Notes under the pieces: generated by a model | Database searches by the model: none | What the model saw: only the letters and a program-made list of their open reading frames with translations | What the model was told of the DNA's origin: nothing | Shown here: positions 18,926 to 49,100 of the stretch, piece after piece | Numbering within the stretch: the first letter of the stretch is position 1 | How the letters are laid out: the number at the start of each line of letters is the position of its first letter | Assembly: GCF_000004075.3 (NCBI RefSeq) | Contig: NC_026658.2 | Span: 10,006,411-10,070,410, forward strand | DNA from: Cucumis sativus | Taxonomy: Eukaryota > Streptophyta > Magnoliopsida > Cucurbitales > Cucurbitaceae | Length of the DNA: 64,000 nucleotides | Direction of reading: 5' to 3' | Program-made: the position numbers and the translations under genes

Positions 18926-19426
18926 TTACATTGAAGAATTATAGGGTCTTAATCCTATATAGTTGCCCGGAGGATCGTAGTTGCATACAACGAACTGGGA
19001 CTTCCCTTTACAAGCCACTCTTGCACATCCAAGATGCACGGAGGTTTGCCACACCATCTGAGTATAGTGTCCACAGTCACCACCCTTGCATGAGTTTGAT
19101 GCATAGTCGTATAAATGCTTTTCTCCCACCCACAACTTTACACCATCCGCACCGGTGAACTCGGGGTAGTAGCCTACGGCTATGTTTTCACCGTATGGTC
19201 CGGTAGAGTGAACCAAGGCACAGTCATTTTTCCTTTGTTGGCGTAGGATTGAGCGTAGGCAGCGACAGTTTTGTTCCATGTCATGGGACCGACGCGGACT
19301 GCCGCTCGAGCTTTGTTGTGTAGGGAAATGTAGTCTTGAGGAGAGTTTTGGGCGTGTTAGGAAGAAGAGGAACGTGAAAGTGGGAAAGAAAATTGTCATT
19401 AGAGGGTTTTGACTTTGAGTTCTCAT
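18926..19426 (-). pseudogene. PR-1 (CAP family) copy 1, frame-scrambled
   Basis: The frame stays open for 166 codons, but only the ends read as PR-1. Against the intact copies it has a two-base deletion near 19354 (GGGCGTGTTAGG for GGGCATGTGCTAGG) and a one-base deletion near 19233 (TCATTTTTCCTTTG for TCATTTATCCTTTTG). The losses add to three, so the frame is restored, but about 45 codons between them are read wrongly. The lost part includes the signal-peptide end and the first CAP His (LHNKAR). The C-terminal half, with GENIAVGYY, GHYTQMVW and the end CNYDPPGNYIGLRPYNSSM, is normal. Almost certainly a pseudogene although it looks like an ORF. An LTR sits ~160 bp upstream of its start. Confidence 0.85.
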
Positions 19427-19584
19427 TTTGATATGTTAGAGAATGAAAGAGAATCATGATTTTTTATAGAGAATGAAGAATTAAATATGGAATTTTGCTT
19501 TTTGTTGACCTCTTGTTTATTTCCTTTTTATTTCTGTTTTAATTTGTTACATTAATACATAACTAAAAGGACTAACAATGCCAT

Positions 19585-19607
19585 TGTAAAGACCAAAGGT
19601 AAAAATA

Positions 19608-19703
<96 letters not shown>

Positions 19704-45506: not shown

Positions 45507-45666
45507 TGCGTTTTGTTTCTGCGTTGAGGAGAAGGAATGGAAGGTAAAATGAATTAAGGGTAATTTAGACAATTCACACATAATTTGTCCTAGAAATCAA
45601 CTTTTTAAAAATCAATCTCATAAATCTTTTATTCCTCCATTTTTGGCTTATTTTTGGTAATTTCCC
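44275..45666. other. MULE right arm, no gene recognised
   Basis: Short frames on both strands, none with a recognisable domain. Contains a (GT)n followed by a T-run at 45473-45507. The right inverted end is 45540-45666. Confidence 0.5.
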
Positions 45667-45675
45667 TTTTTCCTT
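45667..45675. repeat. Right target-site duplication of the MULE
   Basis: TTTTTCCTT, perfect match to 42118-42126. Confidence 0.92.
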
Positions 45676-46148
45676 TTACGGTTTTTTTAGAAAAAAAAGT
45701 AACTCCGAGTCTGGAATTTGAATTTTGAAAACACAAGGCGAAAAAACATTTATAGGTAAAAAACTAAATTTATAAGCTTAAATTTACAGCCATCAAAAAC
45801 AGAAAAATAAAAAGATCAAATGATTATCAACCATATCCAAAATAGAGAACTTGTGAACCTAAAACTTTATAATGTGTTTTCAAATATCTCAAGCGTTTAA
45901 TCACCAATCACCCTTGACCTAAATCATCAACATGATTATCATATGGAACTTTTATCCAAATCCAAATTTAAACTAATTCAATATTTTTCTCATTGTAAGT
46001 AACTTTTCGAAATCATCCTTAAAATTTTAAAACCTGATAATCAAGTAGAGAATTGATTTGCAAAAAGGGGAGAGCGATCATCTTCCTCAATCCTACAAAG
46101 TTCCAATAGATATGGTCCAAGAGCACTTTTAACATATCAAAAATCGTA
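45676..46148. other. Spacer between the MULE and the TBL 3' end
   Basis: Matches 33377-33825. It presumably includes the TBL 3' untranslated region; no separate gene. Confidence 0.65.
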
Positions 46149-49100
46149 TTAACGTCTAATGTTGTATAAATGCTGTATGAACAAGTCGTTCCATGTATCG
46201 GTGAGTCCCGGCAAGCACCAGTGCATACAATCGTCGTGCTTCTTTCCACCAGCTGAGGCAGGATGTGCATCTGCCCTCAACTCACTCATGGGAGTTATGT
46301 TCAAAATATGGAAACTAGTTCCACTGAGAGCCTTGAAAAGGTGCTCATTTACAAGTCGAACCTCGACATTGGTTCTGTTATTTGTCAGCGAGAACAGATC
46401 TTCGGCCTGGAAAGGAAAACTAAACTTTCAGGCAATTCATTTCCTTAAGAAAAAGTAAGGGAAGAGGCCAAAATAATAAATTTAAGGCTAAATTATAAAA
46501 AAAAACCATTAAATTTGCCCATTCATATCAAATGCAACGTCAATATTTTCATCTCATAAAAATTTCAAAACTACGCTTAAAGTATAAGGTTTATACAATT
46601 TTGAATGTATAGTGGGACTTGGAAGAGTGTGATCGTAACCTACACAGTGTTGGCAATCCAAATTTTGTTCTCAGTCACCACCACATTATTTCAAGTCTCA
46701 ATTTTCTTTTGACATTCTATAGGATTTCCATCCAAATGGTAGTTTTGAAACAGTCGTGAAAGGTCTAATGTCTAGGTATTTTTTAAAGTATGAGCAAGTT
46801 CAGGACTACTTATTTTATAACTTCTAAATTTAGTATAAGATTGTTTTAGAATATGGAAGAAAACAAATATGAATCGGCCACCTGTTGTGGAGAAAGAGGA
46901 TGTTTCCGCTGGCAAGAACCACCTTGGTACCAGTCACCTCCTTCAAAATGCCTGGGTGATTGCGTACGGAAGAATTTGATTGCACCTTGTGGCATTCTTT
47001 TCTCCACATATGATATCTATGATGAATAACAGATCATTCACAAAATGGTAAAACACAGTTCTTTTCTCTTGTTTTGCACAATGTTAGTTCCTCGACAATC
47101 AACTCCTAACTGAGCAAGCCAACGGCTTATGCACAGCTCAGCGAACCAATAGCACAACTACATATCTAGTAATAAAATATTCTGGTGTTTTGAAGTTTTT
47201 AGCATATTTGATATTAGATCAAAGATACGACCATGAAGACTTAAAGGTAAACAATGCAGCTCATTGCCTCTCCATCTATTGATCCAGAAAATCGAGTTGT
47301 TATGAATTTGAGGTGAAAATTTTATCTAAACTACAAAATTACGACTTGAAAACAACTGATAGTGATCTAGAATTTATAAGAGGAAATGTTTACACCTAAT
47401 TGAACAGGACGGGGTCTTCTACAAAGTTTCTAGTTAAGAAAATTGTCTAAAAGCAAGTTGACAATTTAGCTCACACAATCAAGACCCAAAACTAGTTGAC
47501 AGATCTGAATTGAAATGCAAAAGAAGAAACAAAAAAACTATATACCATATGTTTCAAAACCATATCCAAGCCAACATCAGGAGGTACCGGAGGAATGACA
47601 GGCAGACTCTTTTCGAAAAAAAGCATTGGTGATTTTACAGGGTCAAATTTTGAAGGCGCCCACCACCTATATGAAGCAAACAAAAAAGTTTGAATTATCT
47701 ATCTACAAGATAAATGAAAACTCAAGAGCCCATGAACTTGAAAAGGAATATCTATATAAAAAAATGAAGATTAAGAATTATATAATTACAAAAATAAAAA
47801 TATAAATAAAGTGAATGTAGTTTTGTACTAATATAAGTTTTTTTTTTTTTTTTTGGATGAGAAAGAACTAATATTCTGGCAACAGCATTTCATTACAGTC
47901 CAATCGTCTTAATTCTCTCAACTGCAACGGTTGAAATTTCCTACTGGCTACTACCCAGATTAATCATAACGGGTCATGGAAACAAATTCCATAATAAGAA
48001 GCCCTTGATTACAAGAATTTAGTCCTGCCATGATGTGGTTTTCATACACTATCATACTTCTTCATTATGCAAAGTTCTGCGAAATTGGTATTATGCATAC
48101 ATTTCCACCACCAACCCCCTCCCCCAACAAAAAAAAACTGAAATTGTAAAATAAATAATCCATTGTTGTCATAGCGTGATAGTTGAAATGAATTGGAAAA
48201 ACAAATACAAGTACCAATGTCCTGTGTTAAAAACTAAAACATCGTGGAAATTTGGGGCCTCCATCCATGAACTATCTGGAATGTCAACATCAACTCTGTA
48301 TCCTTCTTTATATCCCAGAGATTCTAATGGCCCACCATCAGCATTAGCTGACCACCTGACTCAAACAGAAGCAGGAACAGAAGACGTTAATTATCAACCG
48401 CCAAAAAACTTCTAAAAGACAAGTACAGTGAAAATGTGAGAAGTGAGAACCTAGCAAATTAACCAATCAATGGCCTCTATACAACACAGATGTACTTGAA
48501 AATCAGATAAAAATGAAAAATGAAAACAGTTTGAGAAACGTCTAAAAGCTTTTACAGTGAGAGTAGTATGGGGCTCAGACACATGGTCTAAATGAGTTAT
48601 TATACAATAAATCTTTGGAACAGAGTTGAGCATAAGCTCTTCAAACACATGGTTGCAACTTCCTGAAACATAATTTTTTTTGTTAAGAATCAAAGTTTCA
48701 TTAAAGAATAAAAAGTATAAAAGAAAGAAGGAAAGTCATTAACCTACTTCAAAACAAACTCAACTAAGACCTTCTCCCAACATTTTTGGGCCAAAGAGCC
48801 GATGAAAAAAAAAAGATAGTCCTGACTTTCCTTGTTTTCTTTGCTTCATTAAATTGAACCTACAAATCCACTCTCTGAAAAAAGTGAAGATTCAGTGTTA
48901 GCCTAACGGGAAAAACAGTTACTTCCACATTAGCCAGTTACTTCCACATTAGCAACTCCTATACATAACAACATTTTGTTCGTGAACAATTCTAAGGCCA
49001 GCTTTTCATCTCTCCAGTTTTTCTTTGTTGATAAGCAATGAGATGCCCAATCCACAAGTGATAGAAAAAGGAGAGTCAATTTGGCATAAATCATACAGTG

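What the first reader, a model, noticed from the sequence alone, without database searches (positions are those of the whole stretch)
18926..46406. Five-copy PR-1 cluster made by segmental duplication, with two survivors and three different ways of dying
Copies at 18926, 24394, 29430, 34807 and 40310 share not only coding sequence but several kilobases of flank. Copy 1 died by two compensating deletions, copy 2 by deletion fused to an LTR, copy 4 by a 34-base signal-peptide deletion plus a TGG-to-TGA. Copies 3 and 5 stay intact and nearly identical. This is a young birth-and-death locus of a secreted defence protein. Seen: copies and lesions. Inferred: order of events.
Basis: partly seen in the sequence, partly recalled or inferred. 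Interest (0 to 1): 0.75.

Follow-up and report, generated by a model that had tools for sequence, protein, structure and literature searches.

The report
Eroded PR-1 defence-gene array in cucumber
A plant genome, very probably cucumber, carries a young and mostly broken row of five copies of a secreted defence-protein gene, with a sister row on another chromosome, and recombination and jumping DNA as well as small mutations decided which copies survive.

Summary

(1) The cluster is not alone. The same genome (226.6 Mb, very probably cucumber) has eight close copies on contig C2 and one on C6, a lineage distinct from the larger PR-1 array on C7.

(2) The array is built from two diverged gene types, here called beta and alpha. 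Copy 1 is beta; 2, 3 and 5 are alpha; copy 4 is a beta-to-alpha chimera. Its 34-base deletion falls at the junction (diagnostic sites 52 beta:2 alpha upstream, 3:19 downstream), so it looks like a recombination scar.

(3) LTR-like elements sit in the array, one 159 bp upstream of copy 1. A Mutator-like insertion and the flank of a lost sixth copy lie at the right end.

(4) An independent record shows copy 1's 2-bp deletion but not its "compensating" 1-bp deletion.

(5) Many single-base lesions in the C2 array look like uncorrected long-read errors.

This is ordinary birth-and-death evolution, clearly resolved. Interest is modest.

The parts
18926..19426 (-). Copy 1, beta-type PR-1: 2-bp deletion near 19353 and 1-bp deletion in an A run within 19222-19242; 40 residues between them out of frame
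   Evidence: the 2-bp deletion recurs in P0185, the 1-bp deletion does not
19585..21831 (+). Element 1 (LTR-like, 2.2 kb) 159 bp upstream of copy 1's ATG; absent from the C2 counterpart; its right end lacks the CA terminus
21832..24652 (.). Block colinear with C2 beta upstream to alpha gene; holds a weak reverse-transcriptase-like fragment at 23034-23420
   Evidence: 96%; zf-RVT E=0.0023, below its cut-off
24394..24652 (-). Copy 2, alpha-type remnant (residues 82-167), cut at an element
24653..27518 (+). Elements 2a (24653-25631, truncated) and 2b (25632-27518, truncated at its left), head to tail
29430..29933 (-). Copy 3, intact alpha-type PR-1, 167 aa
30809..32934 (+). Element 3: TGTAACG...GTTACA, 2126 bp, 4-bp GTAA repeated at both sides; empty site in copy 5, C2 and C6
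34807..35276 (-). Copy 4, chimera: beta upstream and start, alpha-like body; 34-base gap at 35236/35235 and TGA at 35013-35011
37032..38901 (+). Element 4, truncated at its right end, followed by spacer 38902-39052
40310..40813 (-). Copy 5, intact alpha-type PR-1, 167 aa
42127..45665 (.). Mutator-like insertion: inverted ends of about 110 bp (76%), 9-10-bp target repeat, Ulp1-type peptidase fragment
45666..46712 (.). 3' flank of a sixth unit (like 33367-34387 left of copy 4, and C6 3037-4422 of L014) with no PR-1 gene after it

Best explanation
This is the remnant of a tandem array built from two diverged PR-1 genes (beta and alpha). The same pair occurs side by side, repeated at about 6.86 kb, on contig C2. 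On C4 the array was invaded by LTR-like elements and rearranged by unequal or illegitimate recombination between beta and alpha units and, less certainly, between the elements. That left a beta gene with a frameshift and an element in its promoter, an alpha gene cut at an element, a beta/alpha chimera with a 34-base gap at its junction and a stop codon, two intact alpha genes, and the flank of a lost sixth copy. The intact copies encode a basic PR-1 protein and look constrained. Shown: copies, types, chimeric junction, elements with empty sites, sister copies. Inferred: order of events, recombination between elements, secretion, defence function.
For: Beta-alpha block colinear with C2 at 96% over 2.8 kb once element 1 is left out. 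Copy 4 switches from beta (52:2) to alpha (3:19, 1 other) between 35237 and 35224, at the 34-base gap, and upstream it is 96-100% identical to C2 beta copies in 100-column windows. Elements 1 and 3 have uninterrupted counterparts on C2 (and, for 3, in copy 5 and C6). Sixth-unit flank without gene. dN/dS 0.13-0.28 over ten pairs of five intact genes. Independent record P0185 carries copy 1's 2-bp deletion.
Against: Copy 4's body is not simply a C4 or C2 alpha: it is 96-99% like alpha in the first 300 coding columns but only 82-95% further 3', so it is an early alpha-like lineage; outgroups C2_1 and C6 are mixed at the same diagnostic sites, so some 'alpha' states may be ancestral. Element junctions of copies 2 and 4 lack intact ends, so recombination between elements is not shown. 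Elements 2b and 3 sit at the same paralogous position, which the model does not explain. No other cucumber assembly or relative could be aligned here.
Confidence: 0.7

Rival explanations
1. One reading: one PR-1 segment was duplicated in place five times and three copies then died by independent small lesions.
For: Long shared flanks within C4; two intact copies; lesions differ between copies.
Against: Two gene types about 10% apart, shared with C2; copy 4's lesion at a type switch; copies 1 and 2 closer to C2 (0.8-2.2%) than copies 3 and 5 are to each other (3.4-3.7%).
Confidence: 0.15
2. Sequence exchange (gene conversion) between the C2 and C4 arrays, not copying of blocks, made the close similarity of copies 1 and 2 to C2 and the mosaic of copy 4.
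For: Divergence between C4 and C2 is uneven: 0.8-1.4% for copy 1 and 1.7-2.2% for the copy 1-2 block, but 5.4-5.9% for copies 3 and 5 against C2_2, C2_4 and C2_6 over the gene region.
Against: The colinear block is 2.8 kb long, and copy 4 shows one main switch, at a deletion, as a crossover or end-joining would leave. C2_8, on a shorter stretch, is 2.5-2.6% from copies 3 and 5.
Confidence: 0.1
3. Part of the cluster is an assembly artefact: false copies or uncorrected errors in near-identical repeats.
For: In C2, single-base gaps (141) outnumber substitutions (68) over three unit pairs, and 111 of 141 lie in homopolymers where 53% of bases do. Copy 1's 1-bp deletion is of that kind.
Against: In C4 copies 3 and 5 differ by 65 substitutions and 2 single-base gaps; five C4 copies are 1-10% apart and have different flanks; P0185 confirms copy 1's 2-bp deletion in another record.
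Confidence: 0.05

Closest known systems
Plant basic PR-1 proteins (CAP superfamily, PF00188), e.g. tomato P14a (1cfe) and a solved basic PR-1 (9lyt)
   Same: CAP domain, six cysteines at the same places in five intact genes, basic mature protein (pI 8.5-8.7), C-terminal CNYDPPGNYIGLRPY
   Different: Four extra residues (NSSM) after the final PY that ends the two solved chains; nothing known to be functional
Cucurbit 'basic form of pathogenesis-related protein 1-like' (Cucurbita, Momordica, Benincasa)
   Same: Same clade, support 100/99, in a tree of 32 proteins; 66-72% identical
   Different: Here amplified to 14 copies on three contigs; copy number in the other cucurbits was not examined
Birth-and-death tandem gene arrays with unequal crossing-over (as recalled for plant defence genes)
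   Same: Tandem copies, chimera, mixture of intact and broken genes, mobile elements in the array
   Different: Nothing in kind; the particular point is a two-type pair with a sister array on another chromosome

Membership tests
Plant PR-1 | CAP domain (PF00188) | tested here: met
   Copies 3 and 5 at E=1.7e-19 and 3.7e-20 over residues 35-151; broken copies 1 and 4 in part
Plant PR-1 | Six conserved cysteines and small basic mature protein | tested here: met
   Cysteines 70, 114, 119, 135, 140, 149 in five of five intact genes; pI 8.52-8.73
Plant PR-1 | N-terminal secretion signal | tested here: inconclusive
   Hydrophobic start followed by AHAQ/NSPQ, where the solved mature chains begin; no predictor was run
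Plant PR-1 | Induction by pathogen or salicylate | not testable with these tools
   No expression data; one cucumber study used a chromosome-7 gene as PR1 (PMC12610254, passages)
Birth-and-death tandem array | Recent tandem copies, some intact, some broken | tested here: met
   2 intact and 3 broken of 5; block identities 94-98%
LTR retrotransposon (solo LTR) | TG...CA ends with 4-5-bp target repeat | tested here: inconclusive
   Met for element 3 (GTAA) and for five of ten fetched loci (ATTCA, but all five share the same outer flanks, so one event); elements 1, 2a, 2b and 4 each lack at least one intact end
LTR retrotransposon (solo LTR) | A full element with paired LTRs around gag-pol in the genome | not tested
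   No complete element was seen in the loci fetched; no targeted search was made
Mutator-like element | Long inverted ends and 9-10-bp target repeat | tested here: met
   42127-45665: inverted ends about 110 bp at 76%, repeat CTTTTTCCTT, empty counterpart at 33377; no transposase looked for

The most novel reading that the evidence does not exclude
The C2 array is a very young expansion of a paired defence-gene unit (units about 0.3% apart in substitutions) that still exchanges sequence with the C4 array, so that this secreted defence protein is kept up by a concerted system on two chromosomes and not by a single birth-and-death locus.
Probability: 0.2. Interest if true: 0.55.

Novelty: new member of a known kind. 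Interest (0 to 1): 0.35.

Why it matters
It is a clean small example, in what is very probably a crop, of how a defence-gene array decays: a 'deletion' that marks a chimeric junction, an element in a promoter, a relic of a lost copy. It also warns that near-identical PR-1 copies on two chromosomes will blur expression studies, and that single-base lesions in long-read arrays need checking before a gene is called dead.

Tried and rejected
Rfam (gathering threshold) and tRNA scans of the window found nothing. I considered the C7 array as the source and rejected it: in a tree of 32 proteins the C2, C4 and C6 genes sit with Cucurbita, Momordica and Benincasa proteins (100/99), apart from the C7 genes; copies 1, 2 and 4 were not in that tree. 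A duplication of large chromosome blocks was rejected because window 16.2-18.7 kb and 46.7-64 kb gave no match of 150 bases or more to C2 21.070-21.120 Mb (the satellite left of 16.2 kb was masked in that search). The idea that C2 copies 2-7 are real pseudogenes was set aside because of the indel spectrum, but a single-base deletion shared by C2_2, C2_4 and C2_6 may be real. The search with copy 4's truncated ORF listed no identical record among the best 120 of 191. P0051, alpha-like with an intact start, ends at the codon where copy 4 has TGA; a shared stop or a contig end, I could not decide. Elements were not dated, since their junctions are broken. No structure was predicted, as relatives are solved.

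Literature: searches listed no paper that describes this cluster; 20, 20, 5, 10 and 10 papers were listed, of 435, 291, 5, 27 and 225 found. (satellites, assembly, Ulp1 transposons) were listings too. Passages only were read of PMC6582320, PMC10427922, PMC12610254 and PMC4583154. PMC8813957 was seen only in a listing.

Full report
Identity of the genome. The window is G000:C4:10006411-10070410 of a genome of 226,625,048 bases in 88 contigs. The published long-read cucumber assembly is 226.2 Mb with 7 pseudo-chromosomes (PMC6582320, passages). Cucumber has 182-bp Type I/II and 360-bp Type IV satellites (PMC4583154, passages), and the window holds arrays of 181 and 360 bp at 3.7-16.1 kb. I take it as very probably Cucumis sativus; no call names the species.

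The observation. Self-BLAST finds the copies and their shared flanks. Copies 3 and 5 are open for 167 aa and carry a CAP domain; the best solved relatives are a basic PR-1 and tomato P14a. The lesions of copies 1, 2 and 4 are as described.

The wider family. A search of the genome with copy 3 gave 40 matching pieces. Fourteen copies form the close group: five on C4, eight on C2 (21.081-21.105 Mb) and one on C6. On C2, C2_1 and C2_8 are clearly intact; C2_2 is open only through three single-base deletions; the other five are broken. Part of C2 repeats at about 6.86 kb, each unit with one alpha and one beta gene; three units differ pairwise by 20, 23 and 25 substitutions in about 6,800 aligned bases. 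In a tree of 32 proteins the intact members fall with Cucurbita, Momordica and Benincasa proteins (100/99), apart from the C7 genes.

Error check. Over the three pairs of C2 units, single-base gaps (141) outnumber substitutions (68), and 111 of 141 lie in homopolymers, where 53% of bases do. In the coding region of C2 copies 2-7 there are 17 single-base deletions, plus a 3-base and a 4-base gap, and no private inserted bases; C2_1 and C2_8 have none. One of these deletions is shared by three copies and may be real. When the C4 block 21832-24649 is compared with three C2 counterparts, single-base gaps fall 5-12 times on the C2 side and 0-2 times on the C4 side. The published assembly was corrected with short reads under a mapping-quality filter, which could leave near-identical repeats uncorrected; that step is inference. 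So C2's small lesions should not be trusted, while C4 looks sound.

Copy 1. It is a beta gene, 0.8-1.4% from three C2 beta copies. Its 2-bp deletion recurs in P0185, a 139-aa record from a 4,902-bp contig, where the frame stays shifted past the place of the second deletion; that P0185 is the same locus is likely, not shown. The 1-bp deletion is a lost A in a run of four. A 2.2-kb element lies 159 bp upstream of the ATG, where C2 has none.

Copy 2. It keeps residues 82-167 of an alpha gene and stops at 24652 against a truncated element. After two head-to-tail elements the sequence resumes in beta upstream sequence (C2 18735). Of six pairs of element ends compared, 1 with 2a (6.0%) and 2b with 3 (8.0%) are closest. 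This would fit recombination between elements but does not show it.

Copy 4. At 77 sites where five alpha and four beta references each agree and differ from one another, copy 4 reads 52 beta and 2 alpha up to the junction, then 3 beta, 19 alpha and 1 other. The switch lies between 35237 and 35224; the 34-base gap is at 35236/35235. Under the same test copies 1, 3 and 5 keep to one type apart from scattered sites, copy 2 and C2_8 wholly so, and the outgroups C2_1 and C6 are mixed. The gap is best read as the scar of the recombination that made the chimera. The alpha-like body is an early lineage, 82-95% like alpha in its 3' part. The TGA is a separate lesion.

Right end. After copy 5 the spacer is split by a Mutator-like insertion with inverted ends, a 9-10-bp target repeat and an Ulp1-type peptidase fragment (E=1.3e-24). 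It then continues as the 3' flank of a unit whose gene is missing: 45666-46712 matches 33367-34387 left of copy 4 at 89%, and one search lists no PR-1 match beyond it in this region.

Age and constraint. K is 0.035 between copies 3 and 5, 0.013 between 2 and 5, 0.008-0.026 between chosen C4 and C2 pairs and 0.003 between two C2 units. Over the whole gene region copies 3 and 5 are 5.4-5.9% from C2_2, C2_4 and C2_6. With recalled rates of 5e-9 to 1.5e-8 per site per year the pairs give 0.1 to 3.5 million years; exchange between copies would make these too low. dN/dS over ten pairs of five intact genes is 0.13-0.28.

Function. From recalled knowledge PR-1 is a secreted CAP protein thought to bind sterols and to release a C-terminal peptide. 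Nothing here tests that. A cucumber expression study used a gene named CsaV3_7G007620 as PR1 (PMC12610254, passages), which by its name lies on chromosome 7, so this group may be untested.

Verdict. The sequence observation is right. The process is ordinary birth-and-death, but the history is that of a two-type array with a sister on another chromosome, a chimera and element insertions, not five equal copies with three independent small deaths.

Noticed in passing
window 3669-16112: A 360-bp satellite array (about 32 copies, broken by 500 N) after four 181-bp copies, at 10.01 Mb of contig C4. Matches also lie inside C1, C3, C5, C6 and C7 and near the ends of some contigs (219 matches, list cut); cucumber Type IV is described as subtelomeric, so interstitial arrays may mark old chromosome fusions.
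   Followed up: partly
window 42127-45665: Mutator-like element carrying an Ulp1 (C48) peptidase fragment and a 179-bp tandem repeat, inserted in the spacer right of copy 5.
   Followed up: partly
L024, L025, L026, L030, L031: The same TG...CA element sits, between ATTCA repeats, at one point of a larger repeat that occurs on several contigs.
   Followed up: no
window 27519 and 32935: Elements 2b and 3 end at the same paralogous position upstream of beta and alpha sequence, though both sites are empty on C2; unexplained.
   Followed up: no
P0001 and P0051 (protein records, no locus): P0001 reads as a beta-like start with an alpha-like body and is intact; P0051 is alpha-like and ends at the codon where copy 4 has its stop.
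   Followed up: partly
C2:21083363-21103955 (L010-L012): Array of near-identical 6.86-kb units with an excess of single-base gaps, probably uncorrected sequencing errors.
   Followed up: yes
window 49869-50390 and 52714-53286, minus strand: ORFs with a PMR5 N-terminal domain and a weak methyltransferase match, probably exons of ordinary genes.
   Followed up: no
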